A stretch of DNA of 64,000 nucleotides from Trichobilharzia regenti (Eukaryota > Platyhelminthes > Trematoda > Strigeidida > Schistosomatidae), in the NCBI GenBank assembly GCA_944472135.2, contig OX235263.1, forward strand, positions 25,907,379 to 25,971,378, written 5' to 3'. Both the position numbers and the translations under genes were made by a program. The notes under the pieces were generated by a model. The model had not been told where the DNA came from and searched no databases. It saw only the letters and a program-made list of their open reading frames with translations. This document shows positions 25,826 to 61,120 of this stretch, piece by piece; position 1 is the stretch's first letter, and each line of letters starts with the position of its first letter.

Positions 25826-26019
25826 TGTAGTAATTTATTGTAATTGAAATATTAATATACCGGGATGACGGAATTATAGGAATCTAATCAAAACCCAGAG
25901 AGGGCAGCAATCAGTAATTTGTATTTAGCGGAATTAGAATGCAATTCATATATGAAACATATCAACAGTCAACAGTAAGTATTTAAACAATACAGAGATA
26001 GAAATTGTCAATCACCACA
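25826..26019 (-). repeat. 3' LTR of gypsy element (minus orientation)
   Basis: 194 bp. It contains the gag-pol fusion stop codon: the frame ends at 26008, 12 bases inside the LTR. Confidence 0.88.
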
Positions 26020-27447: not shown

Positions 27448-27460
27448 CGCGACGCCAATT

Positions 27461-27654
27461 TGTAGTAATTTATTGTAATTGAAATATTAATATACCGGGA
27501 TGACGGAATTATAGGAATCTAATCAAAACCCAGAGAGGGTAGCAATCAGTAATTTGTATTTAGCGGAATTAGAATGCAATTCATATATGAAACATATCAA
27601 CAGTCAACAGTAAGTATCTAAACAATACAGAGATAGAAATTGTCAATCACCACA
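27461..27654 (-). repeat. 5' LTR of gypsy element (minus orientation)
   Basis: 194 bp. Followed on the minus strand by AATTGGCGTCGCG and the gag ATG, so a primer-binding site starting at TGGCGTCGCG would run into the start codon. Confidence 0.88.
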
Positions 27655-28333
27655 GATTCCGTACTTTTTGATCAACCAGAGTCGCCTTACTTAGCCAGTT
27701 GCATATGGGCACAGTACTAGATGTCAAACGGCTGATACCTGACGTCGTACGAGTAAGCATAACAAATTAGAGTCAATACATGCTTCATTAATCTGTCAAC
27801 TTGTAGTGGAATCGTCAGATATAAACTGTTCATTTGGTAATGTGGTGAGGAACAATTTTCGTTTCTGTCTAACGTTCGGCTGATATTAATCAATATCTAA
27901 TGTCTTTGTGATCAATAACTGCAATATTTACATGTCTATCTTGTGGATATTAAATTACTTAACACTTTATGCATCTAATTGGAAAGAACAAAGTTTAATG
28001 ACGCCACTTTTTCCTGCTTGACATGTCCTCCTTGCTTTATCCATGCTAGTAGCCTGTTTTACAGGACTCACCACACAGCTTATCAGCATTAAATGTACAC
28101 CACACATAGGGATGATGTCTATGGGCTAAGTGTGCATACTAAAGTAAACGCTCGTAGTGCAAATTCATCATTTATGAGGCTACCTAGTAAAGTATGTAAG
28201 AAATACGATTTGACCAGTTATACAACGTTCAGTATGTTTAGACATACTGGACGTACGCTGCTTAGTTCAGTGATGCATTGTCTAAAGGCACGTAGTTATC
28301 CTAAAATAGAAGTAATCTCCTGTAGCTGCCATC

Positions 28334-33350: not shown

Positions 33351-35159
33351 TTCTTTTAACTGTTCATTCACAATATGTATCAATTCACTTTTTTCTTTGA
33401 TCTTGTATTTTGTCATTAGTCACTCATTATTTCCAAGCAAAATATTGACTACATCTCCCTCACTTTTTCAATTCTAGTGTAAATAGTCAGGCTTTTAACA
33501 CTGAATAATTTGTCTACTCACATCATCCTCGGAAGTGTGTTGTCTAAACTTTCTATCTATGACTACAAGTCACCGTGAAAAGTGTGTTCAAGTATTTTGT
33601 CACTTCTAATCTGATTTAGTTGAGTATGTCCGCAGTTGAAAAGAATTCACGAAACTAAGCGAATTCGTATTATCCTGCAAATATGTTCGTTATTTCTCTG
33701 TTCAAACCAACAATGAGAAATGGTTGTAAGATAGGACTAAGTTATAATGCGAGGAAAACTACAGTCACAGGTGAATTTTCCCGTCACGTCACCTCCAATA
33801 TAACTATAACATTCTACACACACCGCCATTATTGAACATTGTAGGGAGAAGTCAAAGTGATGTCAAAATATCATTATTATTGTTACTGTTAGTATTATTT
33901 TTACAATTATCACTACTACTACTGCTATTATTATTACGACTACATATCACTAGTAAAGTCTAATCAAGTGAAAGAGAAAAGAAGAAGCACGTTGTCTTCA
34001 AATGATTCGTGAAGACAGTCGAATACATAGACATGGATTACGGTAGTAAATATCCTGTCAGTGAGTGGTATTCATCCTTCAGGAACAGAAAAAAGAATGT
34101 GAAAATGATGAATGAACGAGTAGTTTGAAAAGAATCAACGATGATACTGAAGGAGTGACGAACGTTTCATAATGTGAATCAACCACTAATTTTCGACATT
34201 TTCAGTCTCAAATGACTGAATTACTCGAATCGATTGTACTCCAGTTGATACGCTGGATCATACATGTCCTTCATGCATTCAAACGTGGGCAAGACGTGTA
34301 TTAAGCACCTCAGTTAAAAGCATCATACCAATTAACCACCACAACAATCAGTCTGGAAGAATCCGAAGCTTCCCATCTAACTATAATACCGATTCTCGAA
34401 ATTTTCACTACACAATGTTTAGTTATTCATTAGATGTGAACATCTCACCTACTTGTCTCTAAACACCAACACAACATTATTCAATAGGACATGAGATGTG
34501 TTGAAAGAGACTACACGATAAGTAGACTGATCTTCGCCAAAAGGATAGTGTGGATTGATTCTGGTACATAAACTCACCCTCATACTCGTCCTAACTTTCT
34601 CATAGATTGATCTGGTTTCTATAAAGAGAAGGTGGAGTTTGTAGTCAAAAAAGGATCATTTGATGTGTAAACTTTAAGATGCGCTTGTGAGAAAACAGAT
34701 AAAATGTTATAAGTCCATCGTTTCTAATCATCGAGACAAGTATCCGCATAGTACGCGAAAAATCTGAGTGTGAGATGCTATCTCACCTCCGACTCAACCT
34801 TTACGACATACTAGACTGTTGGAAGCGCCTTGCAAAATACTCGACTTCAAATTTTTCAACTTACCATAAGCTATCACTGACAGGTGTTGCAAATGACTGA
34901 GATTTATTACCCGTTGAGTCAATTGGTTTATTTCTGGAAAGGAAGGCAAAGTGCAAGCACATATCATGGATAGGCATGGTGATTTGTGGACAAATGAGGA
35001 TGGGAGGAAGCATTGCTTATTCGGAAGACGGGAATATTGAGCGAAACAGTGCTCACTTCTCAATTAAACTCCACTCAGCACACTGAACACATACATACAT
35101 ATATACGCCACAGCTTTTCCAGTAGGCAGTGGATGGTTTTCAATATCTGGTATCGTTAC
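33351..35159. other. No recognisable gene
   Basis: Unique-looking AT-rich DNA with a short ATT/ACT microsatellite around 33880-33945. Frames such as 34794-35063 (minus) lack motifs. It may be intergenic or intronic. Confidence 0.4.
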
Positions 35160-35526
35160 CTACATATTGAAGATCAATCAAATTGTCAGAGACAATCAGC
35201 GACAAGAATTTTGAGGAACAAATCAACCACCCAGGAACCCACTGATCAAGAAATACGCTGGACGAAATGGAGATGCATCAGACAAACGTTGAGGAGGCCA
35301 TCGGTTTACATCGCTCACCAGGCCATCTCTCGGACAGGACATGAGTGGACATCGACGAGTAGGGAGTGTCCCTGAGGGTAGTGACATTGAGTAGGTCATG
35401 TTGAGGGCTGATGAGAACCCATAGGCAATCTTGAGGCCAGCTGAATAGGACCGCAAAGAATTGGACGAAGCGGAGATGTGCTGCTGAAGCCTTCTGTCCC
35501 GCTTGAAACTCAAGGGAACAATAATA
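35160..35526 (+). pseudogene. RTE-like LINE 3' fragment
   Basis: Reads RWTKWRCIRQTLRRPS with the C-terminal RTE pattern, and ends in GAAGCC...CTTGAAACTCAAGGGAACAATA, the diverged form of the RTE tail at 4780 and 53575. It abuts the last exon of the predicted micro-exon gene. Confidence 0.7.
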
Positions 35527-38500
35527 TTAGCAGTAATAAAATCCTAGAAATACGGTCAGTGGAAATTGCCCTGGAAGAAGAATCATTAGGGCATTTGTAA
35601 GTAAGTAGACTTTCTCTTCATACAGAGAAACTTCATCGTTTACGATAAACGTAATATGACAGTCACTGTCAATTGTTATTGAGTCGAATAAATTGACAAA
35701 CATCCGTCTGTGAAATACGAAGGATAAAAGTTGTGGAACATTCTTCCACAAAGCAATGACATGTTTCGAATTACCTTCAGTGCGACTAACCGACAGAAGA
35801 CTATCACATTCACTTAAATCCGGCTGTTGTCCGATACCTATTCAAGAAGAAAGAATAATATTGACGGTATTTCGTCGGCTACAATGAACATGGTGTGTTC
35901 AGTATTACTGATCACCAGTATTCTGTGATTTGACTTACGGCTTGGACGGGCTGAAATACACAGACGTCAACACATACAAACATATTACTCGTTTATCATA
36001 ACATCGGAAATAATATGTACGTGTAGGTTGTAAATTTCGCCAACCTGTTGTTGGAGTTAAAGTGATTCTTGTTGAGTAAGCAGTGAGTGACGGATCTTCA
36101 GAGAGAGAAATCGGAAGCTTTAAATCTTCATAGGAATTGACCATAAGTCAATGAAATGTCCATCTACGGATTACGCGATATGCGCACTGTTGCCGACTAG
36201 CTCTCAGTTACTCTCAATTCACCTCTGAACACTGTGAGCGGCTGGGCATCAACTATTCAAAACGATGTACTCATTCACAAAACGATTTTAGTGAGTAGCA
36301 TCGGAGAGTAATCACCCGTTTGGTTTTGACAGTCTCACAAACAAACCAAGTCCCAACACATTGACCCTAGTTCACAAAATGACAACAGACGTATACAAAA
36401 TCACTACTGGATGTCAATTATTGTGCAGTGACTGACAAATTCATTCAAATATCCAACAGATAAACACATCTGTCTTCCAGTCACACACCTGCGCTATCAA
36501 CGATAACTAAGTTAGCATTTAAATACGTTGACTTGGCCAGAAGAATGAGAAACCGTAAGCAGAAGTGAAACTAATCTGCCTAACCAATAATATCAGTGCT
36601 TACATTCAGATCCATGGCTTAACGATTCCCTCCAGAGAGTTCTACTCAGAGATATGTAGAAGAAGTTCCCTGAATAAAATGCAAATAGAACAGAATATTC
36701 ATCGACCAGTAGTTTGAAAATCACCTGTCACATTGATCCAATGGTAAAAATTCAATGGATCATTTCATGTTTGTCTCCCTATCTGACAATTATTAGTGGC
36801 CTGTAGTTCAGGCTTTTCAGCGAATAAATCAACATCTTTCGCCATTAAGTATCGTCGGGCATTGATTGGATGAAATGCTAGATAGGCTTGTAGTCTCCTA
36901 TACTGGTGGTATCCAAGTGACTGATAAGCAGCTCAAAACTGTCTGCCACACGTACACTCATCTTTCAATAGCAGTAGAGAGACTCAACTGAATCTCTCTC
37001 AAAAATCAGGCTCGAAAACTTGTTGATTGAAATGCACGGTGAACAAGATCAAACAAAATAGGGTATAAATTACGAGGGCGTACTTACCGTATGACTTCTG
37101 TACCTCTCTGATGGTCCCTGAAATGCCTGACGAAAGAAATGAATACACGACAGATTCAAGATAGACAACAAGTGGGATAAGGAAAGGTGCTAAATTCCTA
37201 ACCATGAGGTACTCAAATTGAATAGGTAGCACTATTCAGACATATTGTTTAAACAACTGAACGTCAGCCTTCACATGTCTGTGTGATATTCAATAGTGGC
37301 GTTAATTCAAAGTCTATTTAACGAGAGATTTCAATAGTCTAAAAAAATTTTTTTGCAGGTTAAAGATGAACAACAAACATTTCACTTACTTCTGTAAATA
37401 TCCGGTTGGTAGTAGTGTTGAGAAATATTGGATAGACAATTCGCAACTAAAAGAACGATTATTTCTCAATATTGATTAAATTTGTTGACTTACACGCAGT
37501 GATACTTTTACCCGTTTCTCTGGCCTGTCTTTCCAAGCGGTCTGAATTGGGAAAGAGACAAAGAAAGAGTCAGTTGCTTAGTGCAATATAAATCATGATT
37601 ACAAAACATTTGAGGCAGTATTGTCAATATTGCTCGCTTCTCAAATATTGAAATAAAAGCTGATGAATAAACGGACGGTAGTGTGGCATCACCAGTTCTC
37701 TGTCTCCAATGATACCTAGATATTGATGTTTACACACATTTGAACAGCATTTGACAATTGTTTACTGCATGTTCATGCACAAAGTATTTAACATCCTCCA
37801 GCGACTAGTAATGCGAAACCGCAGATTCACTTCAAAACACAAAATCTATGTACGAAACACCTCGAAACTGATATTAGTTATATTGTGATTGTCATCGATT
37901 TACAGGTTATAAAGCTACATCACACCACTGACATCCTTAGTAGGAAGGATAACTAGAGGCTGTGAACACTCCACGTTTGTTGAAGGATTATGGCAGGCAA
38001 GAAAGAGGAGGCTAAGTGTGGGTCTTAGTTACTTTATAATTGAAAGTGATACCATTGCGAATAATAAATATCCCTCGACACATCATTCGGGGAATAAACC
38101 TAATTCAATCTGTCATATGTCCAACAATAACATTAATTTTCAACTATATGCAAACACCACCACAGAGTTCAAGTAACACACACATACTATTGATTCGTAG
38201 CATCACTGACACAGCAAATTAAGAAATAAAATACAAAATACACATGGTAAGTAAAAGCAGGCTTGCTAGAGAACCTTCTAAAGCCTTCACTTTCTGCTCC
38301 GCAATGGCTTTCTTATTTTCATGTCTATTATACGTCCTGTAAAACAATCGCAAAATTTGAACAAATGAATTGATAATGTCAATAGGAATGATGGCAGATG
38401 TCAAATCTGTTCATCAGTCACACTGAAATCGTCTACATTCACAGAGTGTTCGAGTGTTACACGCTGAACATGCTTTCATCAACCACCTCCAACGCAGATA

Positions 38501-40891
38501 ATTGCGATTTCGGAGAGAATACGACAAATCATTTCACAAATGAAAATGAAAATGTATTCAATGAACATGTACATTACTACTTCGCCAAATGTTAGGCGAA
38601 TGCATAGAATATTGAAGTATATTGGAAAGAATTTGCTTGATTTCACAAAAGAGGATGATAGGATCTAAGGCGCGTACCCGTTGAAGAAGTTGCATCGCAT
38701 CTTCAAAACAAGAAGGCAGAGCATGAAATCATTCGAAAAAGCATGATCGAATGCTACGAATTGTTCAGTTTCAAGAATGAGTGACGTAGAGAAAATGTGT
38801 GCCAGAATGTTTTATTAGAGTGAATAGTACTGGTTGATATGTTCAATGAGTAGCGTATTGAAGAGAAATTCATACTCGAGAATACGGAACAATACCGCTT
38901 GAAATACCCTCTCACTCACTCCAGAAGAAGTAACTTTTGTCCTGCTCGAGAATCCTAGTTCTCAAACCGAATTCAGGGGTTAACTGCCACAGATGCAAAC
39001 TGACTAGCTTCTCACCACAACCACCTACCCAATGTGAATACATTGAGGATTCATCTTTTCACTCTTAGGAAATATGAAATGATGAAGTCGATTCCCGCAT
39101 ATCCACAGCATGCAGACTCCCAGAGTTCAACGCTATCGTCCTGCTGGACTAGATGAAGTTGTTTCACTTGCTGCATTTCTTTGCAGGATTTACATGATGT
39201 ATCACCACCAGACTATTCGATAATAGCCTAAAATTAGCTGACAAACTACCAATTGTGGAGAACAATATTCAAAAGCTTGACATCTATTATGACTAATCAC
39301 CACCATTGTCTCCAATTTTACAAAATTTCGTAATCGATTTCAGCCTAGCACGTTTGTCACACAAATACGACTATTTATTTTGACACCCCATAACTAATCT
39401 GTTATTCTACGTTAAAAATGTATCCGCCACATAACTGGTCTTTATTGTAACGACAACAAATGTTATATTTTATAATTGTAAGAACCTGAAGAGAGATTAT
39501 TGGAAAGAATATTATTCGTTCAGATTGACTTTCAATTCATTGTAGAATCCCGAATATTCATTCCTGAGGTGACTGGATATTCGACAAGCAACTTCACATT
39601 TCAAAAGAATTTACAAGTCAGAAACAATCGGATTATAGCAGACTAATGGCAACATGAATGCTTAAATTACTGTTCAATGTGCAATGGCTCACAGTAATTC
39701 TGAGTATTTCCAACAGCTTCTGAAAAGGAGAAATATTTAACAATATTTAATAATAATAATAAATTTAATAATATGCGAAACAGGCGGAACTGACGAAGAT
39801 ATCAAAGCCAGAATCGGAAAAGCAAGGCAAGCTTTCATTAGTCTTAAGTCTGTGTGGAAGTCAACAGCACTCAGCATCAAAAATAAGATCCGGATTTTCA
39901 ACTCCAATGTAAATGCAGTGCTACTATACGGATCAGAGACTTGGCGAGTCATAAAGAGCACCTCAAACAAACTTCAAACCTTCATTAACAATTGTCTTCG
40001 CACAATACTCAAGATCAGATGCCCTGGCAGAAAAGACCAGCAACAGGGATCTCTGGGAGCGAAACAATCAGGAACCGATTATGAAACAAATATGCAGGAA
40101 GAAATGAAGATGGATTGGCCATACTCTGAGGAAACCATCAAGTGACATCACTAGACAAGCCACCGCTCAAGTGGATCCCGAAAAGGAAGCAGCGAGTTGG
40201 TCGTCCAACGGTGACTTGGAGGAGGTCATGTGAGGAGGAGATGTAAGCATGTGGACAGACTGGAAGCGGGGTGAAAAAGTTGGCAGAAAACAGAAGGAAA
40301 TGGAGGTGCGCAGCTGAAGACCTATGTTCCTCTAGGAACTAAAGGATATAATAATAAATAATGAAGCTTAGCATATTTAATCACACGAATCACTAGATCA
40401 ACAGAGAGGGACAGTCGTTCATCTATTATTTCGTGGATAGACCACCTAAATACTTTTGCACTCAATCTGCACTGAGTACGTGTTTCAAATTGATGCGACT
40501 CAAGATGAGTTTGGAGTCATGAAAATGAAATCATCAATGTACACAATTCGTGCAACAGAAACGTATGCAATGTATGCGAGTTCGTGTTATCGGTGTGTGT
40601 CAGATAAATGAATAGATTGGGTTGTCATGCCGTACCTCAAATTCATCAGAAAATGATATTCATATCGACGTCTGATAGATCTGATCGAATCGAGTGGTTC
40701 ATACATTCACACAAATCACTGATTATCACATAGTTGTCAGAAGTGAGTTATCTACTTTCAAGGTAGTTTCAAAATATTTAAAGTGCAATATATACACACA
40801 ACGAAATTAACTGGCACTTACCTGTCAGTGGAGATGAATGCAGGAGAAGGAGGAACACAGTGATTTCTAATGATAGGAAAGCGAAAGCCAT
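35527..40891 (-). CDS. Predicted secreted micro-exon-type gene, copy A (spliced)
   Basis: Predicted exons in transcript order: 40822-40891 (70 nt, ATG), 37494-37541 (48), 37390-37446 (57), 37088-37117 (30), 36604-36669 (66), 36045-36095 (51, weak donor GTTGGC), 35939-35950 (12) and 35527-35837 (terminal, 311 to TAA). Except at the 51-nt exon, donors are GTAAG; acceptors end in AG after pyrimidine tracts (best: GCATTTTATTCAG before the 66-nt exon). Exon 1 encodes a signal peptide (MAFAFL, then TVFLLLLH). It ends in phase 1, and every internal exon is a multiple of three starting and ending in phase 1, with no stop in the joined frame: 197 residues, or 214 with the 51-nt exon. Tiny symmetric exons behind a signal peptide are the hallmark of schistosome MEGs, whose secreted products vary by exon skipping. 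I cannot assign a MEG family; more micro-exons may exist. Intron 1 contains an RTE fragment. Gene model inferred, not confirmed. Confidence 0.7.
37847..39423. other. 1577-bp segment present only in copy A (inside MEG intron 1)
   Basis: Precisely missing in copy B, where the bases flanking it are joined at 55874/55875. On the minus strand 38336-38219 follows a good acceptor (GATTGTTTTACAG) and ends in a hydrophobic tail (SLASLLLLTMCILYFIS), but its open frame needs phase 2 and does not fit exon 1. On the plus strand 38674-38784 encodes 36 residues (HLQNKKAEHEIIRKSMIECY inside) before a stop. Neither is a supported gene. Confidence 0.5.
39776..40355 (+). pseudogene. RTE-like LINE 3' end inside MEG intron 1 (copy A)
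   Basis: Encodes KARIGKARQAFISLKSVWKS and VLLYGSETWRVIKSTSNKL, then LRTILKIRCPGRK, closely matching 4250-4822. It ends CTATGTTCCTCTAGGAACTA and (ATA)n. Same strand as the other RTE copies and antisense to the host gene. Confidence 0.85.
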
Positions 40892-42379
40892 GATTATGTG
40901 TAATTCCGTGAAATCTGATGTATATATATGAATTTGTATTCTAGAGATTCAAATGAACAAATGAAGGACGCGAAGATATCGGACCATTTCGAGGTGACTC
41001 TAGTTTATGTTATGTCCACGTGGTCATGGCGTGATTATCATTATTAAAAGCAAATTGACCTTTATCAGGGAATGTAGACAGTTTTCTTCAAACAAGGTGT
41101 AATTATTCAGACAGAAAAGGCGAAATTTGGTATTATTTCTTATGAGAATTTCTTCACTGTAATAACTTTTTCTTGTGTTAGCAGAGGGTGGGAACAAGGA
41201 ATATTGTTTAGAAAGCATTGCCTTCAGTGTATTGTAGTCATGCGTTATCAATAAGGGCAGTTTATTTGATGGATACATCTGTTACCTTGAATGACTGATT
41301 GCTTATATGCTGACGAAATATGTGATATTTCTGTGAGAAATATGGTGAGGTGACTGTAAATATACAGATAGTATGAAATGGATGAAGACGATGTGTATTC
41401 TTAATAGAAAGATTCAATGTGAGCAATGAATTTTGTCCACTCATTTGAAAGCGCTCAACGGATACGGTGAGTGGCTAGTACACATAGACATTATGTTTGT
41501 AAACAGGAGATAGTTATACCCCATTTGATTGTTTATCGTGAAATAATGGATATTTGATTTGTTTTAGGTGATGTCATATCTTGGTGGAAAACTTAATATC
41601 ACTAACAACTGCAACTGCATGTTAGTAAGACAGATGAGAAGACATAGGAGTGAGTTGCTATCAATCCAAGAGGATTCCAGACATCACGCCACAATTTCAC
41701 ACATCAGAAGTATCACAAGAAGATCAGTTTACTGAAACGAAGATCTTTTTTTAAATATCCTACCAAAAGTTTTTTTTTAAACAAAATAGAAAGAGAACTA
41801 ACATGAGTTTCAAAGTTCCTGCTGAAGGTTACTCCATCATCTCTTTGTTGCCGTTTCTTATACCTGCAAATTGTATGCTCCCTAGTTAAGTCTACTGTGA
41901 TTGTTTGTTTAGTCCCCCAAGGTAAGTCACTGTTCATGTTTTTTCTCATGACTGATTTTGGCTAGCAGACAGCTCTCACCATACTATCATTCCAGTCATT
42001 GGTTTTTCCTAGTCTGACGTATTGGTCTATCTCAGTTTTGGTGGGATATTTTCAAGTGATGGTGTCGTGTGTTCTGTAGGCGTATTCCAGCCAGGTTAGA
42101 TGAACGCACAACATCCAGTATCACTTCGTCATGACAAATCTTTAAACTGTATACACTTAAAGCATTATATACAACGCTGACGCGCCTTATAATTGCCAGA
42201 GTAATAGTCTTGACATAAGTTAAACTGATAACAGTTAATATTACTGTATAATACTGTATGATTTATCAAAATAAAATCTTATCCATAATGAAGTTATAAT
42301 CTACCACAGTGCCCAAGTTTTATACTTATATCAATAAATCTCTACAAAGCCAATACTTGAAAATTCATCTGATGATCAT
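40892..42379. other. Upstream region of MEG copy A; no further gene recognised
   Basis: Holds the presumed promoter and 5' flank of the minus-strand gene. A (TA)4 run lies at 40921-40928, only 30 bases before the ATG. Minus-strand frames at 41024, 41262 and 41713 have no motif I can use. The whole stretch is repeated at 57343-58830. Confidence 0.4.
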
Positions 42380-42760
42380 TAGCCATTGGCCCTATTCAGG
42401 TAGTGACCTGGGGTTCTAGTGGGTAGCTTTGGAAAGTACAGTGCAGAAGGTTGAAGATGAGGCAGTAACTCATCGAAGAAGACATTGCAAAGTGGTCGCG
42501 CTATGTCGTGTTATGATAGAGGCTAGAATTCATGGACTGGCCAGTGGATCGGGTCCCAGTGTCTTAATGGACTACGAGTTATCTCACCTTGTAACCAGAA
42601 GGTCTTGGGTTCGACCCGTGGGGGTGTGTGCGTACTGATGAATGGTTCCAAGCTCTAGGACGAAACGCCTGTCCAGTACTCCCTGGTTGGTTTTCCAATG
42701 ATTCTCTAACTGATGTCATCTCATGGTGAAATCCTCCAACCAATCAAACTAAATCCCTAC
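42380..42760 (+). repeat. Sm-alpha-like SINE, copy A
   Basis: Box A-like TGGCCAGTGG at 42538-42547 and box B GGGTTCGACCC at 42607-42617 give a polymerase III-type promoter. A hammerhead-type core follows at 42632-42679. Schistosome Sm-alpha SINEs have exactly this order: tRNA-like promoter, then hammerhead. Ends are approximate. Confidence 0.65.
42632..42679 (+). ncRNA. Degenerate hammerhead ribozyme motif, copy A
   Basis: Core strands in order: CTGATGA (42635-42641), GGACGAAAC (42658-42666) and cleavage-type GTC (42671-42673). GTACTG (42632-42637) can pair with CAGTAC (42674-42679) as helix I, but it overlaps CTGATGA, as if one CTG had been lost. Helix II (GTTCC with GGAC) carries a bulge and extra bases. 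Helix III is as short as in the schistosome hammerhead. Likely decayed rather than active. Confidence 0.55.
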
Positions 42761-42924
42761 GAAAACCGATCCTTGTAATTTCTATTTGTTTAAGCCTCAC
42801 TGGCACACTCGCTTCTAGATCATGATGTTTTACTCCTAAATATTGTGAATTCTGTACCGATTTCCAATTTGCAAATGAACCGGTGTTTTGCAATTTATGC
42901 AGTTCAAGAGAGTGAAATGTCGAA

Positions 42925-43960
42925 ATAATAGTGAAGACATCAAATTCACGAAGAGAGGAGAAGAATTAGACAACATACAATTACTTTCTCATATGTCTTA
43001 ATCAAGAGAATTAACACAGAAAAATTTAGAAACACAAATGTGTAAAAAATCAATGCACACAAACCAAATACTCAACTATAATAGTAATAATGCAATTACT
43101 CACAAAGGAAACTGTGTGCAGAATTTGTTTAAAGGAGTTCAAACATACTGTAGCACTACTCCAGTGTTGAAGAGGATGGAAGAAAAATGCCTACTAACGG
43201 TCTTCAAAAAGAATGAATATCCGCAGAATTTCATCAAAAAGTGTTTAAAATTGAATCACACTACCGACAAGGAACCATCATCGAAGAACACAAGAAAATT
43301 CATCCTACCATATATATAAAAAATATCTCTGAAATAACAGCTAGAATATTGAAACCTTTGAAATATATATAGCACACAAGCCAATCAGCACAATCCCTTC
43401 ATTCATTGACATTGTACAAAGCGAAAGACCCGTCCAAAAGAAAAGGAAGATAAAATTAATACCATTTACAAAATAACTTGTATGAAGTATAACGGATATT
43501 ACATCGGTCAAAACAGGCGTCCCCTGCAAATGAGAATCCAGGAACACAAATTTACTGTGAAAAGACATGATATGTATTTTTCATATCAATACAATCAGAT
43601 AATTATGTACAACAATTTTATTGGGATAATGTTGAAATTTTAAACAGAGGAAACACCAAAAGTTCCACAGAATTCCTAGAAGCCTGTTACTCAGTCGAAT
43701 ATGTAATTAACAAACATGTTAATATAGACCAAATCTACCAACTAAGAAAAAGTAAATCATGTGACGAAAAAGTTCAAAATTCAAGTCCACAAGTACTAAT
43801 GTAAATCAACTACCAGTCACGAAGATGGTTGCCAGGAGATGCAATTCTATCATTCAGATATAATTTAAATTTGTTCATTTTATGCTAAAGCTTGCACTGA
43901 AGATGTTGTCCAGAAGGACAACGAAAGCTCCCCAATAAAAGCAACCAGCTAAGAGAATAC
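42925..43960 (+). pseudogene. Penelope-like element fragment (RT end plus GIY-YIG endonuclease), copy A
   Basis: Plus-strand text across frames: HTNQILNYNSNNAITHKGNC, NEYPQNFIKKCLK, KFILPYI then ISEITARILKPLK (end of PLE RT, about 43038-43360), followed by IYKITCMKYNGYYIGQNRRP and QMRIQEHKF (GIY-YIG start, about 43460-43560) and a degraded remainder. Beyond it, CTGAAGATGTTGTCCAGAAG near 43906 resembles PLE 3' ends. Several stops and frameshifts; not functional. PLEs pair an RT related to telomerase with this endonuclease. Confidence 0.75.
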
Positions 43961-44060
43961 AACTAATTGCAAGAGGGAAATTTCACCACACTTCCGTTTT
44001 CGAAACCGAAAATATTCAAATCATAATACGTGTGATCTACATTTGTGCAGGATTCTATAG

Positions 44061-44552
44061 ACCACTGATTGATTGATATGACTAGTCGGACACCATTCAT
44101 GTCAACTAGTAGTGCTTGCTAGCCAGCCAGAAGAGGAGCCAAGCCCAAATCTGTACAATGTACCCAGTTTGGCTGATGTGAAATAGCCGAATCACTCAGT
44201 TACTTGTGTGAATTGTTCATTTCTTCAATGGAATTCTCATTTTGCTTATTACGCAGTTCAAGGAAGTCAAATTTCTCTACAGTTCCTTTTGCGAACTCAT
44301 CAATTCGACGTCAGAATATACGTGATCTGCTTGACACCATGGTGTCAAATAACTGGTCAGAAATTAGGTGGTTTGAACCAGTGTTCGGCTGCATGATCTC
44401 AATCAAACCAAGTATACTGCTGGTTAAGTCGACCGCAAAGAAGGCAAACAACCTTTTGGTGTCTAGATCATTTCAGTCTGATTGGTTGGCTAGTTGGTAA
44501 GCACTACTGGTTGACATGATTAGTGTCTAACTACTCATGTATGTAAATCAGT
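44061..44552. mobile_element. Nonautonomous element with about 60-bp imperfect terminal inverted repeats, copy A
   Basis: The left end (44061-44125, containing GACTAGTCGGACACCATTCA and AGTAGTGCTTGCTAGCCAGC) is the imperfect reverse complement of the right end (about 44490-44552, GGTTGGCTAGTTGGTAAGCA, TGGTTGACATGATTAGTGTC). Interior about 360 bp with no transposase-like frame. No clear target duplication. Confidence 0.6.
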
Positions 44553-44633
44553 AGTATATACAGGTGGTCTTGCTTGATACTGTCCTACTTACTGAAAATA
44601 ACAGTTTCGCAAACATTAGTCTTCATATTGAAA

Positions 44634-44635
<2 letters not shown>

Positions 44636-44664
<29 letters not shown>
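44636..44664. repeat. TA dinucleotide microsatellite
   Basis: 29 bases of alternating A and T. The corresponding run at 61087-61115 in copy B has the same length. Confidence 0.9.
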
Positions 44665-44669
<5 letters not shown>

Positions 44670-44684
44670 CAGCTTTCTGACAGT

Positions 44685-45190
44685 ATGATCAAATACTTCA
44701 CTTCGATTTCTAAGAAAATTTTCCGTTTAATCTTCTGTGTTAAGAAGTTAAGACAATCAAGAAAGTATCGTTGAGTCTTTACATTTAAAGTTTATTAACT
44801 CTTGCATCTTATATATCTTTCTTTATTACTTCCACTTAGTCTTTCCTGGGCTAATTGAAAAGCGCTGTTTCATATATTGAAAGGTGATAAGGGTTGTCGG
44901 TAAGGCAGGTGGTGTGTCACTAGGTCAGCTTTTTACAACTGTAGTCGACAGACACTTGAACTCACGCAAGAAGCCATCTAAATCTATAAAGTATGACTGT
45001 CACCATTCTCATTATTTACAATTCTCCCCAACTTGCATCTCATCAGGTAGGAGGACTAGAAGTCATTAGAGAAAATTATTTATGTATAGAAATTCAGAGA
45101 TACCATATTTGGCTTGTCAGCTTCCTGTGTGATATAAATATGGTTAAGAGAGAAGCCTACAACTTATTACCTTATCGACAAAATTAATGA
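44685..45190 (+). pseudogene. CR1-like ORF2 C-terminal fragment, copy A
   Basis: ISKKIFRLIFCVKKLRQS (44700), LTTVVDRHLNS-like text (44935) and SPTCISSGRRTR (45028), then IPYLA (45105), match in order the C-terminal region of the RT frame at 14662-15200 (SKKVFRLTYYTKKLRHS, VVNRHMNSCK, PCISSGKTRR, VPYLARVL). Frames broken. Confidence 0.75.
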
Positions 45191-45899
45191 CTTTTTAATC
45201 TTATCCTGTTTGTAATTTATGGTGACATTATCATAAAGGTTTCCTTGTATTTCCCAATGAATGAAAAACCAAACGATATTGTTCGCTATTTAATGCTAAC
45301 AGCTTAATCAAAGTATTATTACACCAAAACTTACAAAATCTCAGCATATATATAACAACTTAATCATCGTTCCTCAGCATGGGGGGCAATTTTCCGTTGT
45401 CGACTTGGCCAATTGGTAAAGATAACAAAACTAGGTGTAGAGTGTTGAATTTGATAAGTGTGTAGAATTATAAAAACAGCCTGTGTTTACATACTGAAGT
45501 TGCTTATCACATTCGTGTTGCTTTTGCCAATTTATGGGGGAGGCGGGTGGTGTAATCAGGTCAACTTCTGTCTTAGTCCATCATCCCGGTTCATCAGACA
45601 ATTGGGATTCCATTTGATATGAAGTACTTCTGATGATGATAGACGTTCTTTGTGATTTCTGAAATTTTTGTGGATTATTTCAATATTAATGTCATATATA
45701 AGATAATACATCAGGTGTATAGATTTTGGGGAGAGGCATATAATTGTAAGATTAATAGACGAATGTAAAATGTTACGTAACATGGTGTGAAATTTGATAA
45801 CATAGAATTTAATATTGTAAAAATTAAGATAAAAAGTATACACATGAATAATTTTTGGTTTAAAATGTCAAGTAGATCAAGTGGAAAAGATTCAGAATG
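45191..45899. other. AT-rich spacer and probable PLE 3' UTR
   Basis: No supported gene. The part right of about 45560 lies downstream (minus strand) of the PLE endonuclease remnant. (TAA)n repeats at 45909-45946 create spurious tyrosine-rich frames. Confidence 0.45.
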
Positions 45900-45989
45900 A
45901 GAGTCGTAATAATAATAATAATAATGATAATAATAATAATAATAATCGAAGTAATAACGGAAAAGTACATAGAATAATAAAATAAAATA

Positions 45990-46193
45990 AAATATTTCAA
46001 TATTGTCAAAATCAATTTCGTGGCCTGATTCCATAACGTGTAGAACTATGGCTGATTATTTTTCAAGTTTCCTAGTTCAACTGGATTTCTCGGTAGTCGA
46101 ACAGATGCAGCTCTACGGTGTTCAATGTATATCGCATCAAATTTCAACCATTTTGTTTTGTAGATACAATTAGATAGAAAATCTTTGGGGATT
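45990..46193 (-). pseudogene. PLE endonuclease remnant, downstream half (split by gypsy)
   Basis: Minus strand: PKDFLSNCIYKTKWLKFDAI and YIEHRRAASVRLPRN (GIY-YIG endonuclease start), then in another frame HVMESGHEIDFDNIEIF. The upstream RT half lies at 51755-52405, on the far side of the gypsy element. The codons at the two borders join across the 4-bp GATT duplication. Confidence 0.75.
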
Positions 46194-46654
46194 TGTGGAG
46201 TCCTCGAAAATAAACTTATCCAAATTTTACTGCTATGTAAGAAATGAACATATTGTACACTACTTTGTTTTAACCATAAACTCTGTACTTTGACTTTACC
46301 TCGGGTTTTGAATAAATATATAGTTCTGACTTCGACTCTCCATCTTCTCCACCGTCTCAACTGCCGTCGATCAATTTTAATCACCTGCTTTCTATCTCAG
46401 ATTTTTGCAGGAGCACCGTAGTTTCTTCCTACGTACTTTGGTCGACCTCCGGAAACGTCAACATTGGAGAATTAGTACTGGAGCAGTCTTCCCGCAGCGC
46501 CTCTGGAGTCCATTACGTTTATTGTGGATTTTGGATCTTTGTAAACCCAAGTAACGAAACTTTAATATATTCTTCCCGTAACTAAACTGATTTGGTATTT
46601 TATTTTCTATTTGAATTTGGGTAACTAAGCTAACAGAGTAAAAGGTCCACCACA
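46194..46654 (+). repeat. 5' LTR of CsRn1-like gypsy
   Basis: 461 bp, TGTGG...CCACA. Confidence 0.92.
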
Positions 46655-46840
46655 ATAATTGGTGAACCCGTTTCGAACCTTTTTTATGGTTAACCCGTTT
46701 TCGAACCTTTTTGTTTCGATAGTTAACTCGTTTTGAACATTTTTGTTGCTATTTTGGTCTTATAAACTCACATTGCTTTAATTTTTGTTACCACAAGTTT
46801 TGCTATTTTGTATATCTCTATACTTATATATTATATAGCA

Positions 46841-47731
46841 ATGGCTCCATCTAAACGTACCCCTGTTCCTGAAGAAGGTAATAAAGGAGAAGAGACACAG
46901 AACTCTGCTGTTAACGCCTTGCCGGATTTAAGACTACCTCAATTTGATCTGGCTGAACCACGTGTCTGGTTCACAATCATTGAACAGTTGTTTGCAGCTC
47001 GAGGTATTACGTCGCAGATTGCCATGTATGGTTGCGTATTAGCAGCAATACCCACGGAAGTACTACGAGAGGTTATCGATGTCATAGACAGCAAACCTAC
47101 AGACTCTCAATATGACAAACTAAAAGCTGCACTCATCCAGCGGACCACTCTCTCCGATGAGAAACGCATACAACAACTACTTACTTCGTGTGATCTAGGT
47201 ACAAAAAAGCCATCTCAACTACTTAGACATATGCGCCAGTTGATTGGGTCACACAAAGTAGATGAGTTAATTCTACGTCAGATGTTCTTACAACGTTTAC
47301 CACAAAACGTTCAACAAATCCTAACAATATCTTCTAGGACGACAGACCTTGAAGAATTAGCTAAGATGGCAGACGATATCATGGATGTGTTATCAAATAA
47401 TGGCATAAATAGCGTGTCTACAGCGGCAGTACCACCAAGCCCTTCCACATCTATGAAGGACGCACCAATGTTTTGGTTACTTTCCCAGTTAACATCTCAA
47501 ATGCAAGATTTACGACTGGAAGTGTCCGAGCTTCGAGCACAAAGGAACCAGTCACATACGGTATCCAAGCAACGGCGATCAAGATCTAGACGACGTTCTA
47601 GAACACCGTCTCAAAGCCGTAACATTTGTTGGTATCATAGGAGGTATGGGCATAATGCCCTGAAGTGTGTTCGACCGTGTATGTACAACAGTGGTAACTC
47701 ATCTCAGGGAAACTCCCCAGCCAGACAGTAA
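46841..47731 (+). CDS. gag: Gag of CsRn1-like gypsy element
   Basis: The ATG at 46841 ([13 protein letters not shown]) is chosen because the longer open frame to 46808 starts with TTG. 296 residues. Residues about 30-180 form the capsid-type region ([48 protein letters not shown]). A basic serine/arginine tract (about 245-258) is followed by the unusual CHCC zinc motif [18 protein letters not shown], which replaces the usual CCHC knuckle and is typical of the CsRn1/Kabuki group. The stop TAA overlaps the pol ATG by one base (TAATG). Packages element RNA into particles. Copy B (63291) carries nonsense codons. Confidence 0.9.
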
Positions 47732-50700
47732 TGGCGACGGCTGTTAATGGCAATCACCCCAGTCGCCTTTTCTATGTGAGGGATTTGACTACCGGCACAT
47801 TATTCCTGGTAGATACAGGCGCCGAGGTCAGTGTTATTCCCCCCTCACTATCCAGGCGATCAGCCAAAATACCTGGAAAACTTTCACTCCGTGCTGCCAA
47901 CCAAACCAACATACAGACGTATGGCGAACAGTCAATGATTTTAAACTTAGGACTACGCCGACGTTTCACATGGATCTTCATAGTAGCTGACGTACGTCAC
48001 GCTATACTAGGTGCAGACTTCCTAAGTCACTTCAATCTGTTAGTTGATATCAGCAAGAAAAAACTGATTGACAATTGCACCCAACTCAAGATCCATGGTA
48101 TTACATGTGACTACTCTGTTCATAGCATCTGTATAGAAAAGCCGGAGAGTGAAATGTTCTCTGCTTTATTACAACGATTTCCTAAAATCCTTAAACCATC
48201 ATACAACGTCGAAGATATATCTCATACAGTTACGCATAAGATCATCACAACAGGACAACCTGTGAAGGCACGTCCACGACGGTTACCACCCGATAAACTA
48301 GCAGCAGCTAAGTCGGAATTCGAACATATGATGCAGCTAGGTATCATACGACCATCTAACAGTCCATGGTCTTCACCTTTGCATATGGTACCTAAAACTA
48401 ATCATGACTGGCGACCATGTGGAGATTATCGCGCTTTGAATAACGCTACGGTCCCAGATCGTTATCCTATACCTCATCTCCACGACTTCTCCTTGACCTT
48501 ACATGGAAAGACCATTTTTACTAAAGTTGACTTGGTCAGGGCATATCATCAAATACCAGTCGCTCCAGAAGACATTGCAAAAACAGCAATTATTACGCCT
48601 TTTGGATTATTCGAATTCTTGAGAATGCCTTTCGGACTAAAGAATGCTGCTCAAACATTTCAGCGTTTTATGGACCAAGTTACCCAAGGTCTTGATTTCG
48701 TCTTTGTATATATCGACGATGTCTTAATTGCCAGCTCATCGATGGAAGAACATATGGAACACTTAAGCCTGTTATTTCAAAGGTTTGAACAATTTGGAGT
48801 TGTTATCAATCCAAAGAAATGTATTTTTGGTTCCCCTTCCATTGAATTCTTAGGACATCGAATAACTGCCGAAGGCATCAGACCTACCGAAGATAAGATA
48901 AAAACTATTAAGAACTTTCCCGAACCTGATTCCTTAAAGAAACTTAGACGTTTTCTCGGGATGTTCAACTTCTACCGACGTTTTATTCCATCATGTGCCT
49001 CCATAGTTCAACCACTGACCGACCTACTTAGATGCAATTCGAAGAAATTTCAGTGGTCTGAAGAAGCAAAAGCAGCATTTAATAATGCAAAAGATGCCTT
49101 ATCCAACGTTGTAATGTTATCTCACATCAACCCAGAAGCTTCACTCATTTTATGTACAGATGCATCGCAGGTAGCAGTGGGAGCAGTTTTACAACAAAAG
49201 TTCAATAATGACACCACTCCACTTGCTTTCTTCTCCAAGAAATTGGAACCTGCGCAAACTCGTTACAGCACTTTTGGCAGAGAACTGTTAGCCATCTACC
49301 TAGCAGTGAAACATTTCAGCTTCTTACTACAAGGTCGACATTTTACTATCTTAACCGACCATAAGCCTCTTTGTTATGCTTTCACCACTTCGTTGGACAG
49401 ACACTCTCCGAGAGAAGCCAGACAACTGGATTACATCTCACAATTCTCAACAGACATCCAGTTCATCAAAGGAGATTCCAATATCGTAGCCGATTCTTTG
49501 TCTCGATGTGACGTTAATCACCTATCTTCGATAGATATTAGCTTAGACAATATTGCCAAGCTGCAGAAAAATGACGCCGAACTCCATACTTGTAGACGAA
49601 ACTCCTCCCTACAGTTGCAGGATGTACCTATTCCCCTGTCTGATACAACTATCGTCTGCGACGTTTCAACGGGCGTTCATAGACCTTTTGTTCCACTAAG
49701 TTGTCGAAAACCTTTGTTTGAACATCTACATTCATTGTCTCATCCTGGAGTGCGTGCTACGGTCAAGTTAATCAGCGAGCGTTTTGTTTGGCCCAAGATG
49801 AACTCCGATATTCGGAAATGGGCCCGCCAATGCTTGCAATGTCAAAGATCCAAGGTACATCATCATACCGTCACACCTCCAAAACAGTTCAATTTACCGG
49901 ATAAACGATTTCAACACGTTCATATAGATATTATTGGACCATTACCGCCATCCAGAGGATTTACTCATATACTTACTGCGATTGATCGATTTACCCGATG
50001 GGCTATTGCTTGTCCACTCAACGATATATCTGCAGAAAATATCGCTTTGGTTTTCTTAGATCGTTGGGTGTCAAACTACGGAGTACCCACAACTATTACA
50101 ACAGACCGAGGAGCTCAATTTCAATCAACTCTGTTTCGAGAGTTTACGAGACTCCTTGGAGTGAACCATATCTCCACTACAGCTTATCATCCTGCAGCGA
50201 ATGGTCTGGTGGAACGTTTCCATCGACAACTGAAAAGCTCGCTTATGGCACAAGCTGACTCATCTAAGTGGAGTGAACACCTACCATTAGTTCTTCTCAG
50301 TATCCGATCAACTGTCAAAGAAGATTTGGGATGTACACCAGCTCAACTTGTGTATGGTACTACCCTCACATTGCCTGGTCAGTTAGTTCCGTCTAATGAT
50401 TCAACTGAAGTAAATATCTCCGACTTCACCAACCGCCTTACCCAGCAAATGCTCCAGCTTCGACCAGTAGCCCCTCGCCAATCACTTCAGAAAGCTCAAG
50501 TTAATAAGAATCTACTCACTAGCAAATTTGTATTTGTTCGCGTCGATGCCATTAGAAAAGGTTTACAACATCCATATGAAGGTCCTTTTCTAGTACTTAA
50601 ACGCACCGATAAATACTTCACGCTGAACAAACATGGTAAACCGGAGACTGTTTCTATCGACCGTCTTAAACCAGCGTACACCGACAGCGAATATGAAACA

Positions 50701-50838
50701 CTAGCAACGCCGACACCAATAAACAATCAGAAAGTCAATGCAACTCCAACTCTCCCGCTCTTCACACTTCCCCCTGTACAGACACGCAGTGGACGGCAGA
50801 TCTGTAAACCTGCCCGCTATGTTCATTTTATTGACTGA
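47731..50838 (+). CDS. pol: Pol of CsRn1-like gypsy (protease, RT, RNase H, integrase)
   Basis: 1035 codons, unbroken. Protease: [15 protein letters not shown] (about residue 28). [40 protein letters not shown] and catalytic [10 protein letters not shown] (about 325). RNase [19 protein letters not shown] (about 475), [12 protein letters not shown]. Integrase: zinc finger HLHSLSHPG ... CLQCQRSK (about 670-705) and core residues in [22 protein letters not shown] and [11 protein letters not shown] (D, D, E). The C-terminus [13 protein letters not shown] ... [11 protein letters not shown] is a basic tail like that of the remnant at 8957-9180. All catalytic motifs are present, so the copy may be competent. 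Translation presumably follows gag by termination-reinitiation at TAATG, since the frames differ and pol has its own ATG. Confidence 0.92.
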
Positions 50839-53624: not shown

Positions 53625-53696
53625 GACCTTCACTTCGTAGAGAGTAGCTTCATAGTTCACGATAAACGTAGTATGACAGTCACTGTCAATTGTTAT

Positions 53697-56600
53697 TTAG
53701 CCGAATAATTTGACAAACATCTGTCTGTGAAATAGGAAGGATAAAAGTTGTGGAACATTCTTCCACAAAGCAATGACATGTTTCGAATTACCTTCAGTGC
53801 GACTAACCGACAGAAGACTATCACATTCACTTAAATCCGGCTGTTGTCCGATACCTATTCAAGAAGAAAGAATAATATTGACGGTATTTCGTCGGCTACA
53901 ATGAACATGGTGTGTTCAGTATTACTGATCACCAGTATTCTGTGATTTGACTTACGGCTTGGACGGGCTGAAATACACAGACGTCAACACATACAAACAT
54001 ATTACTCGTTTATCATAACATTGGAAATAATGTGTACGTGTAGGTTGTGAATTTCGCCAACCTGTTGATGAAGTGAAAGTGATTCTTGGTGGGTAAACAA
54101 TGACTGAAAGATGTTAAGAGGGAGAAACCTGAAGTTTCGAATCTTCATAGGAATTGACCATGAGTCCATGAGCTGCTCATCTTCGGATTAGGCGGTATGC
54201 ACACTGTTCCCAACTAGGTTTCATTTGCTCCCAATTCACCTCTGAACACTGTGAGCGGCTGGGCATCAACTATTCAAAACGACGTGCTCATTCACAAAAC
54301 GATTTTAGTGAGTAGCATCGGAGAGTAATCACCTGTTTTGTTTTTGACAGTCTCACAAACAAACCGAGTCCCAACACACTGGCACTGGTTCACAAAGTGA
54401 CAACAGACGTATACAAAATCACTACTGGATGTCAATTATTGTGTAGTGACTGACAAATTCATTCAAATATCCAACAGATAAACACATCTGTCTTCCAGTC
54501 ACACACCTGCGCTATCAACGATAACTAAGTTAGCATTTAAATACGTTGACTTGGCCAGAAGAATGAGAAACCGTAAGCAGAAGTGAAACTAATCTGCCCA
54601 ACCAATAATATCAGTGCTTACATTGAGATCCATGGATTAATGATTCCTTCCAGAGAGTTCTACTCTGAGGTATGGAGAAGAAATTCCCTGAATAAAATGC
54701 AAAAAGGACAGAATATTTATCGACCAGTAGTTTAAAAATCACGTGTCACACTGGTCGAATGGCACAAATTCAATGGATAATTTCATGTTTGTCTCCCCAT
54801 CTGGGAAATATTAGTGGCCTATAGGTCAGGCTTTTCAGCGAGTAAATCAACTGAGTCAGTTTTGTCAACATCTTTCGCCATTACGTATCACTGAGCAGAG
54901 ATTGGATGAAATGCTAGATAGGCTTGTAGTCTCCTATACTGGTTGTATCCAAGTGACTGAAAGTGAAATTTGGGATGAGCATCTTAAGCAGCTGAAAGCA
55001 GTCTGCCACACTCACACTCATCTTTCAACAGCAGCAGTGTGACACAACTCAATTTCATTCACAAATCAGCCTCGACACTTCGCCGATTGAAATGCAAAGC
55101 GAACAAGATCAAACAGAATGTGGTATGAATTATGAGGGCGTACTTACCGTATGCCTGCCGCACCCTATAGATGCTCTGTGAAATGCCTGAGGAAATAAAT
55201 CAATACGTGACAAATTCGCGATAGACAACAATTGGGATAATAAAAGGCGATTAATTCTTAACCAGAAGATACCCAAGTTGAATAGGTAGCACTATTCAGA
55301 CATATTGTTTCAACAACTGAACGTCAGCCTTCACATGTCTGTGTGATATTCAGTAGTGGCGTTAATTCAAAGTCTATTTAACGAGAGATTTCAATAGTCT
55401 AGTAAATTTTTTTGCAGGTTAAAGATGAACAACAAACATTTCACTTACTTCTGTAAATATCCGGTTGGTAGTAGTGTTGAGAAATATTGGATAGACAATT
55501 CGCAACTAAAAGAACGATTATTTCTCAATATTGATTAAATTTGTTGACTTACACGCAGTGATACTTTTACCCGTTTCTCTGGCCTGTCTTTCCAAGCGGG
55601 CTGGAGTGAGAAAGACAAACAGTTTGTTGCAAGACACTGGAGACAGTGTTGTCAATATTGCTCGCTTCTCAAATATTGAAATAAAAGCTGATGAATAAAC
55701 GGACGGTAGTGTGGCATCACCAGTTCTCTGTCTCCAATGATACCTAGATATTGATGTTTACACACATTTGAACAGCATTTGACAATTGTTTACTGCATGT
55801 TCATGCACAAAGTATTTAACATCCTCCAGCGACTAGTAATGCGAAACCGCAGATTCACTTCAAAACACAAAATCCCGCCACATAACTGGTCTTTATTGTA
55901 ACGACAACAAATGTTATATTTTATAATTGTAAGAACCTGAAGAGAGATTATTGGAAAGAATATTATTCGTTCAGATTGACTTTCAATTCATTGTAGAATC
56001 CCGAATATTCATTCCTGAGGTGACTGGATATTCGACAAGCAACTTCACATTTCAAAAGAATTTACAAGTCAGAAACAATCGGATTATAGCAGACTAATGG
56101 CAACATGAATGCTTAAATTACTGTTCAATGTGCAATGGCTCACAGTAATTCTGAGTATTTCCAACAGCTTCTGAAAAGGAGAAATATTTAACAATATTTA
56201 ATAATAATAATAAATTTAATAATATGCGAAACAGGCGGAACTGACGAAGATATCAAAGCCAGAATCGGAAAAGCAAGGCAAGCTTTCATTAGTCTTAAGT
56301 CTGTGTGGAAGTCAACAGCACTCAGCATCAAAAATAAGATCCGGATTTTCAACTCCAATGTAAATGCAGTGCTACTATACGGATCAGAGACTTGGCGAGT
56401 CATAAAGAGCACCTCAAACAAACTTCAAACCTTCATTAACAATTGTCTTCGCACAATACTCAAGATCAGATGCCCTGGCAGAAAAGACCAGCAACAGGGA
56501 TCTCTGGGAGCGAAACAATCAGGAACCGATTATGAAACAAATATGCAGGAAGAAATGAAGATGGATTGGCCATACTCTGAGGAAACCATCAAGTGACATC

Positions 56601-57342
56601 ACTAGACAAGCCACCGCTCAAGTGGATCCCGAAAAGGAAGCAGCGAGTTGGTCGTCCAACGGTGACTTGGAGGAGGTCATGTGAGGAGGAGATGTAAGCA
56701 TGTGGACAGACTGGAAGCGGGGTGAAAAAGTTGGCAGAAAACAGAAGGAAATGGAGGTGCGCAGCTGAAGACCTATGTTCCTCTAGGAACTAAAGGATAT
56801 AATAATAAATAATGAAGCTTAGCATATTTAATCACACGAATCACTAGATCAACAGAGAGGGACAGTCGTTCATCTATTATTTCGTGGATAGACCACCTAA
56901 ATACTTTTGCACTCAATCTGCACTGAGTACGTGTTTCAAATTGATGCGACTCAAGATGAGTTTGGAGTCATGAAAATGAAATCATCAATGTACACAATTC
57001 GTGCAACAGAAACGTATGCAATGTATGCGAGTTCGTGTTATCGGTGTGTGTCAGATAAATGAATAGATTGGGTTGTCATGCCGTACCTCAAATTCATCAG
57101 AAAATGATATTCATATCGACGTCTGATAGATCTGATCGAATCGAGTGGTTCATACATTCACACAAATCACTGATTATCACATAGTTGTCAGAAGTGAGTT
57201 ATCTACTTTCAAGGTAGTTTCAAAATATTTAAAGTGCAATATATACACACAACGAAATTAACTGGCACTTACCTGTCAGTGGAGATGAATGCAGGAGAAG
57301 GAGGAACACAGTGATTTCTAATGATAGGAAAGCGAAAGCCAT
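53697..57342 (-). CDS. Predicted secreted micro-exon-type gene, copy B (spliced)
   Basis: Paralogue of 35527-40891. Exons: 57273-57342 (signal peptide, 70 nt, same as copy A), 55553-55600 (48), 55449-55505 (57, same as A), 54622-54687 (66, eight differences from A), 54062-54103 (42, candidate), 53956-53967 (12, same as A) and 53697-53854 (terminal, 158 to TAA). All junctions are phase 1 and the joined frame is open: 150 residues. The counterpart of A's 30-nt exon (55148-55177) has lost its acceptor AG at the aligned place. The nearest AG gives 28 nt, out of frame, so it is probably skipped. The terminal exon stops at 53697-53699, 50 codons earlier than in copy A. An RTE tail follows at 53624. 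Gene model inferred from splice signals and phase only. Confidence 0.65.
56227..56806 (+). pseudogene. RTE-like LINE 3' end, copy B
   Basis: Same sequence as 39776-40355 and in the same place, first intron of MEG copy B, so it predates the duplication. Confidence 0.85.

Positions 57343-61084: not shown

Positions 61085-61120
<36 letters not shown>

What the first reader, a model, noticed from the sequence alone, without database searches (positions are those of the whole stretch)
35527..40891. Unannotated-looking micro-exon gene: signal-peptide exon plus 48, 57, 30, 66, (51) and 12-nt phase-1 exons
On the minus strand, a 70-nt exon with an ideal signal peptide and GTAAGT donor is followed by small blocks between AG acceptors and GTAAG donors (the 51-nt candidate has a weaker donor). 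Every block is a multiple of three and every junction is phase 1, including a 12-nt exon. The joined frame runs 197 codons (214 with the 51-nt exon) without a stop. Chance would rarely give this many consistent phases. This is the architecture of schistosome micro-exon genes, which secrete variable proteins by exon skipping. I do not recognise the family.
Basis: partly seen in the sequence, partly recalled or inferred. Interest (0 to 1): 0.88.

Follow-up and report, generated by a model that had tools for sequence, protein, structure and literature searches.

The report
Bird-schistosome secreted small-exon gene pair
The window holds two tandem copies of a gene that builds a small secreted parasite protein from short exons, most of which can be skipped without breaking the protein; its relatives in the searches made here are all from the bird blood fluke Trichobilharzia regenti.

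Summary
The signal-peptide exon (70 nt), the exons of 48, 57, 66 and 12 nt, and the 63 nt that begin its last exon stand. Its 30-nt exon is really 39 nt. Its 51-nt exon and long terminal exon are not supported. It missed exons of 27, 69 and 41 nt and the true terminal exon. The revised model (40891 to 34038, minus strand) has 11 coding exons, ten GT-AG introns and 176 aa; eight of nine internal exons are symmetric phase 1. Nine Trichobilharzia regenti database proteins were retrieved and no other species. They support the signal-peptide exon, the tail exons and skipping of the 66-nt exon. A second copy at 57342-53792 lacks the last three exons within the window. The copies are a mosaic of identical and about 12% diverged tracts. 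The gene works like a schistosome micro-exon gene (secreted, symmetric, skippable exons) but fails the strict size rule: 7% of its coding sequence is in exons of 36 nt or less. No RNA reads were available, and a genome-wide copy count could not be made. Function is inferred.

The parts
40822..40891 (-). Gene 1 exon 1, 70 nt, signal peptide
   Evidence: ATG, hydrophobic leader, GTAAGT donor; 81% identical over 21 aa to the leader of P0006, E 5e-5
39693..39719 (-). Gene 1 exon 2, 27 nt, phase 1
   Evidence: acceptor ctccttttcag, donor gtgagc; weak match to P0004, 47% over 17 aa, E 0.35, in the right place after the leader as in P0006
38641..38700 (-). Degenerate counterpart of the 60-nt cassette of P0001; no GT at the matching donor position
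   Evidence: tblastn of P0001, E 0.13; sequence; boundary by inspection
38275..38336 (-). Degenerate counterpart of the 63-nt cassette of P0001/P0004; 62 nt here, weak donor, out of phase
   Evidence: tblastn of P0004/P0006, E 0.03-0.06; sequence; boundary by inspection
37494..37541 (-). Gene 1 exon 3, 48 nt, phase 1
37390..37446 (-). Gene 1 exon 4, 57 nt, phase 1; Cys52 and sequon NIS
37088..37126 (-). Gene 1 exon 5, 39 nt, phase 1 (reader: 30 nt)
36604..36669 (-). Gene 1 exon 6, 66 nt, phase 1; its counterpart is missing from P0003
35939..35950 (-). Gene 1 exon 7, 12 nt, phase 1
35775..35837 (-). Gene 1 exon 8, 63 nt, phase 1; Cys117
   Evidence: 100% match to P0005 over 20 aa, followed there by the 69-nt exon
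34865..34933 (-). Gene 1 exon 9, 69 nt, phase 1 (missed by reader)
   Evidence: 100% match over 23 aa to P0005 and P0008
34578..34618 (-). Gene 1 exon 10, 41 nt, not symmetric, shifts the frame of the last exon
   Evidence: P0002, P0005, P0008
34038..34076 (-). Gene 1 terminal coding exon with stop
   Evidence: P0008 C-terminus, E 8e-5
57273..57342 (-). Gene 2 exon 1, signal peptide, identical to gene 1
56144..56170 (-). Gene 2 exon 2, 27 nt, identical
55553..55600 (-). Gene 2 exon 3, 48 nt, 1 difference
55449..55505 (-). Gene 2 exon 4, 57 nt, identical
55148..55186 (-). Gene 2 exon 5, 39 nt, 12 differences, frame open
54622..54687 (-). Gene 2 exon 6, 66 nt, 8 differences, frame open
53956..53967 (-). 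Gene 2 exon 7, 12 nt, identical
53792..53854 (-). Gene 2 exon 8, 63 nt, identical; homology to gene 1 stops at 53624 beside a retroelement fragment

Best explanation
This is a functional-looking gene, with a second tandem copy, from a Trichobilharzia-type bird schistosome. It encodes a small secreted protein (176 aa before leader removal) built from symmetric phase-1 exons. The leader exon sends the product out of the cell. Because eight of the nine internal exons are symmetric and share one phase, any subset of them can be left out without a frameshift, giving proteins that differ by cassettes of 4-23 residues. The non-symmetric 41-nt exon is a tail switch: with it the protein ends in a 12-residue tail; without it the last exon is read in another frame, which here stops at once. 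Two cysteines (positions 52 and 117) flank the exons that differ most between the copies (39 and 66 nt), so they may form one disulfide loop whose size changes with skipping. Duplication, conversion-like exchange and loss of exons vary the set further. Shown: sequence structure, phases, two copies, homologues, mosaic divergence. Inferred: secretion, use of the skips in living worms, tail switch, disulfide, exposure to the host.
For: Chance test. All ten introns GT-AG and a 176-aa frame with a single, terminal stop. A spliced draft (164 aa) matches three T. regenti proteins at E 1.0e-44, 4.9e-44 and 9.5e-26; nine T. regenti entries were retrieved in all. P0008 runs through the end of exon 8, exons 9 and 10 and the terminal exon as in the model; P0006 joins a matching leader to a segment in the place of the 27-nt exon. 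P0003 lacks exactly the 66-nt cassette and carries the Ala that the window's 39-to-12 junction codon GCC predicts. In copy 2 the diverged 39- and 66-nt exons stay open with splice sites kept.
Against: No RNA reads; the T. regenti entries are uncharacterized or unnamed database proteins of unknown evidential basis, and several read through donors (P0004, P0005, P0006, P0007, P0009), as a gene predictor might. P0001-P0004 lack the leader. P0006 reached only E 0.13 before it joined the profile, P0009 2.6e-3 and P0007 0.19-0.49. P0001-P0003 have a third cysteine in the 69-nt exon and P0004 one in the 39-nt exon, which weakens the single-loop idea. No signal-peptide program was run. The structure model is unusable (mean pLDDT 41.5). 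No Pfam family above cut-off for the draft.
Confidence: 0.8

Rival explanations
1. A classical schistosome micro-exon gene belonging to one of the numbered MEG families.
For: Leader exon, symmetric exons, introns longer than exons in nearly all cases, transposons around, tandem copies; T. regenti has MEG-4, -8, -9 and -26 (passages).
Against: 7.3% of coding sequence in internal exons of 36 nt or less against about 80% by definition; profile searches returned T. regenti entries only; the post-leader motif described is absent by inspection.
Confidence: 0.12
2. Decaying pseudogenes: exon loss, a tail-less second copy and TE insertions mark a dying locus.
For: Two degenerate exons in copy 1, absent from copy 2; copy 2 lacks three 3' exons within the window; TE pieces in introns.
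Against: Copy 1 is fully open with ten GT-AG introns; the 39- and 66-nt exons of copy 2 carry 20 changes without a stop.
Confidence: 0.07
3. The reader's exact model (30-nt exon, 51-nt exon, terminal exon ending at 35527).
For: Open frame at those borders; P0007 also reads through the 63-nt donor, with 76% identity to the window there.
Against: Copy 2 has a stop in the read-through; P0005 and P0008 join 63 to 69; P0001-P0003 lack the 51-nt block and fit 39 nt.
Confidence: 0.02

Closest known systems
Uncharacterized T. regenti proteins A0AA85K247, A0AA85K844, A0AA85KAW2, A0AA85K6D7, A0AA85K6F1, A0AA85J2D1, A0AA85K3U1, A0AA85K3S4 and one unnamed NCBI entry
   Same: Share exons in the same order; best local identity 66% (P0001, P0002), 52-54% (P0003), 97% over 34% of the model (P0005), 95% over 32% (P0008)
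   Different: Fragmentary or without leader; P0001-P0004 and P0006 keep the 60-nt and/or 63-nt cassettes that are degenerate here
Schistosome micro-exon genes (MEGs)
   Same: Leader in the first exon, symmetric skippable exons, long introns, tandem duplication, TE-rich surroundings
   Different: Exons mostly 39-69 nt rather than 36 nt or less; no sequence match found
Trichobilharzia MEG transcripts of PMC6362228 said not to be close to S. mansoni MEGs (passages)
   Same: Same genus; secreted proteins
   Different: Their sequences were not in hand, so identity with this family is untested

Membership tests
Micro-exon gene (MEG) | Signal peptide mostly or wholly in the 5' exon (passage of PMC4671649) | tested here: met
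   Hydrophobic leader in the 70-nt exon; by hydropathy only, no signal-peptide program
Micro-exon gene (MEG) | Central exons mostly symmetric | tested here: met
   8 of 9 internal exons; 71.8% of CDS
Micro-exon gene (MEG) | About 80% of coding sequence in symmetric exons of 6-36 bp (passage of PMC5825161) | tested here: not met
   39 of 531 nt, 7.3%
Micro-exon gene (MEG) | Protein variants by exon skipping | tested here: inconclusive
   P0001, P0002 and P0003 differ by whole cassettes, but are database models; no reads
Micro-exon gene (MEG) | Post-leader motif FL-phi-phi-F-X6-W-p-(K/H/R) reported for S. mansoni MEGs | tested here: not met
   By inspection of the model: its only Trp lies in the 66-nt exon and no FL-phi-phi-F is present
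Numbered MEG families | Sequence similarity to a named member | tested here: inconclusive
   Only T. regenti entries at E up to 10 (7 hits among 7874 candidates; 9 among 4407); the search needs shared 5-residue words, and whether the database holds the MEG records was not checked
Numbered MEG families | Similarity to solved MEG structures | tested here: inconclusive
   One irrelevant chain at E 2.9 for the 164-aa draft

The most novel reading that the evidence does not exclude
The two copies act as one compound locus. The upstream copy keeps leader and seven further exons but lacks a tail in the window, so its transcript could run on and splice into the downstream copy. All shared junctions are phase 1, so exons of both copies could be combined freely, while conversion-like exchange keeps some exons identical and lets the 39- and 66-nt exons diverge: a chromosomal cassette system for varying a secreted protein.
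Probability: 0.1. Interest if true: 0.65.

Novelty: new variant of a known kind. Interest (0 to 1): 0.42.

Why it matters
Micro-exon genes are thought to let schistosomes vary proteins shown to the host. A related design in a bird schistosome with larger exons, one shared phase, a frame-switching tail exon and mosaic tandem copies would help to say which part of the design matters (symmetry or tiny size) and whether it arose before the schistosome genera split or separately. It also shows that database models of such genes can be fragmentary.

Tried and rejected
Chance assembly of splice sites: rejected. Structure prediction of P0002 with five relatives: unusable confidence, so no fold search was made. 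Pfam for the 164-aa draft: one sub-threshold match, E 0.16. Solved structures for the draft: one irrelevant match, E 2.9. Rfam at gathering thresholds: no match in the window. dN/dS between copies: too few changes; in the 39- and 66-nt exons 17 nonsynonymous against 3 synonymous, pN 0.21 and pS 0.14, but in the 66-nt exon alone pN 0.12 is below pS 0.16; suggestive at most. Amphipathic segment at residues 63-84: the highest moment was reached in 0.8% of 2000 shuffles, suggestive only. Recombination between retroelements as the cause of the truncated copy 2: not settled, because no match between 35.1-35.5 kb and the element at 52.4-53.6 kb was listed at E 1e-5. Literature searches; the accession search (six of the eight UniRef accessions) found 0 papers. 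Papers were seen as listings, abstracts, passages or single sections only.
Full report
Observation. I read the minus strand of 34800-41600 and scored acceptor-donor blocks. Four of the 15 rows are the signal-peptide exon with chance upstream AGs. The gene 1 region has 6 distinct donors, against a mean of 0.32 and a maximum of 3 in 300 dinucleotide shuffles and at most 2 in 31 half-overlapping control tiles. The cut-offs were chosen after the first scan, and the 27-, 63- and 41-nt exons do not pass them.

Second copy. A self-comparison shows that 35607-37556 matches 53624-55615 (89.6%), 37599-37846 matches 55627-55874 (97.6%) and 39424-47550 matches 55875-64000 (99.7%). So a second copy of the gene lies upstream on the same strand. 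In the exon part the copies are a mosaic: identical runs of 286, 196 and 154 bp sit among sequence that is 12.0% different (140 of 1163 non-exon positions outside long runs). The 48-, 57-, 12- and 63-nt exons carry 1, 0, 0 and 0 differences; the 39- and 66-nt exons carry 12 and 8, without stops and with splice sites kept. From 39424 to 46186 there is no difference at all, and from 46187 to 47550 there are 24. Recent conversion or unequal exchange would explain the mosaic; an assembly error is not excluded.

Homologues. A spliced draft model (164 aa) matched three T. regenti proteins at E 1.0e-44, 4.9e-44 and 9.5e-26 (3 hits among 39 candidates). Profile searches added six more T. regenti entries and no other species at E up to 10 (7 hits among 7874 candidates; 9 among 4407). 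The weak ones are P0006 (E 0.13 before it joined the profile), P0009 (2.6e-3) and P0007 (0.19-0.49). Placing these proteins on the window corrected the model. The 63-nt exon ends at its donor and joins a 69-nt exon (34933-34865), a 41-nt exon (34618-34578) and a terminal exon (34076-34038). P0008 runs through these junctions. P0006 begins with a leader 81% identical to that of the window over 21 aa, followed by a segment in the place of the 27-nt exon; the direct match to that exon is weak (P0004, E 0.35). P0005 is 97% identical over the third of the model it covers, so the window is probably from T. regenti or a close relative; I could not fix the species or tell paralogue from allele.

Model. 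Eleven coding exons of 70, 27, 48, 57, 39, 66, 12, 63, 69, 41 and 39 nt give 531 nt and 176 aa with one terminal stop, and ten introns of 47-2151 nt, all GT-AG. Eight of nine internal exons are symmetric phase 1. The 41-nt exon is not symmetric. In T. regenti P0002 and P0003 it is present and the tail resembles one frame of the last exon; in P0001 it is absent and the tail resembles another frame of the same place. The two short tail matches of P0002 and P0001 are weak (E 2.1 and 0.97); the P0008 tail match is better (E 8e-5). In the window the second frame stops at once.

Skipping. P0003 lacks exactly the 66-nt cassette and has Ala at the new junction; the window's 39-to-12 junction codon is GCC, Ala. 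Compared with P0001, P0002 lacks 20 residues and P0003 21 residues near the N-terminus, two further cassettes. Counterparts of these lie at about 38700-38641 and 38336-38275 of copy 1 in degenerate form, inside a 1577-bp stretch (37847-39423) that copy 2 lacks. Their boundaries are by inspection and the matches are weak (E 0.13 and 0.03-0.06).

How it may work. A leader, two cysteines flanking the exons that differ most, sequons (NIS at 55, NLS at 138) and skippable cassettes suggest a secreted protein with a variable loop. Against a single loop, P0001-P0003 have a third cysteine and P0004 has one in the 39-nt exon. One amphipathic stretch at residues 63-84 has a moment reached by 0.8% of shuffles. 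The structure prediction gave mostly helix at useless confidence. All of this is inference; no expression data were available.

Comparison. Published definitions of MEGs require about 80% of coding sequence in symmetric exons of 6-36 bp (passage of PMC5825161), or a centre mostly of exons under 36 bp with the leader in the 5' exon (passage of PMC4671649). A later article allows 3-81 bp (abstract of PMC10526429). This gene has 7.3% in internal exons of 36 nt or less and 71.8% in symmetric internal exons. It works like a MEG but is not a member by the strict rule. MEGs in S. mansoni are often tandemly duplicated, TE-enriched and fast evolving (abstract and first part of Results of PMC4350168); tandem copies and retroelements are seen here too. 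T. regenti has MEG-4, -8, -9 and -26 (passages of PMC5825161), and Trichobilharzia transcripts not close to S. mansoni MEGs have been reported (passages of PMC6362228); whether those include this family is untested.

Limits. The genome-wide search did not complete (14 calls), so copy number is unknown. Absence from other species rests on a word-based search of one protein database.

Noticed in passing
39424-46186 and 55875-62637: 6.76 kb with no difference at all between tandem copies, while beyond it 24 differences fall in 46187-47550 and the exon side differs by 9-12% with identical tracts; recent exchange or assembly error.
   Followed up: partly
46194-51754: Gypsy-type LTR element: LTRs 46194-46654 and 51294-51754 at 99.1% identity, pol ORF 47698-50838 with RT, RNase H and integrase domains; a second copy begins at 62645.
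   Followed up: partly
10035-12032 and 24278-28332: Inverted, nearly identical segments (678 bp at 99.7%, 790 bp at 99.1%, 543 bp at 99.4%) in an element-rich region; also 13315-13821 against 18065-17559 inverted at 99.4%.
   Followed up: no
98-2137: 679-codon open frame with DUF1759 domain, E 1.2e-9; by recall a retroelement gag-type domain.
   Followed up: no
39785-40357 and 35100-35540: Retroelement 3' fragments inside introns of gene 1; the first also occurs at 4243-4819 at 95.7%; the second judged by eye only.
   Followed up: partly
37846/39424 against 55874/55875: Copy 2 lacks 1577 bp present in copy 1, with a 3-bp shared sequence at the junction.
   Followed up: partly
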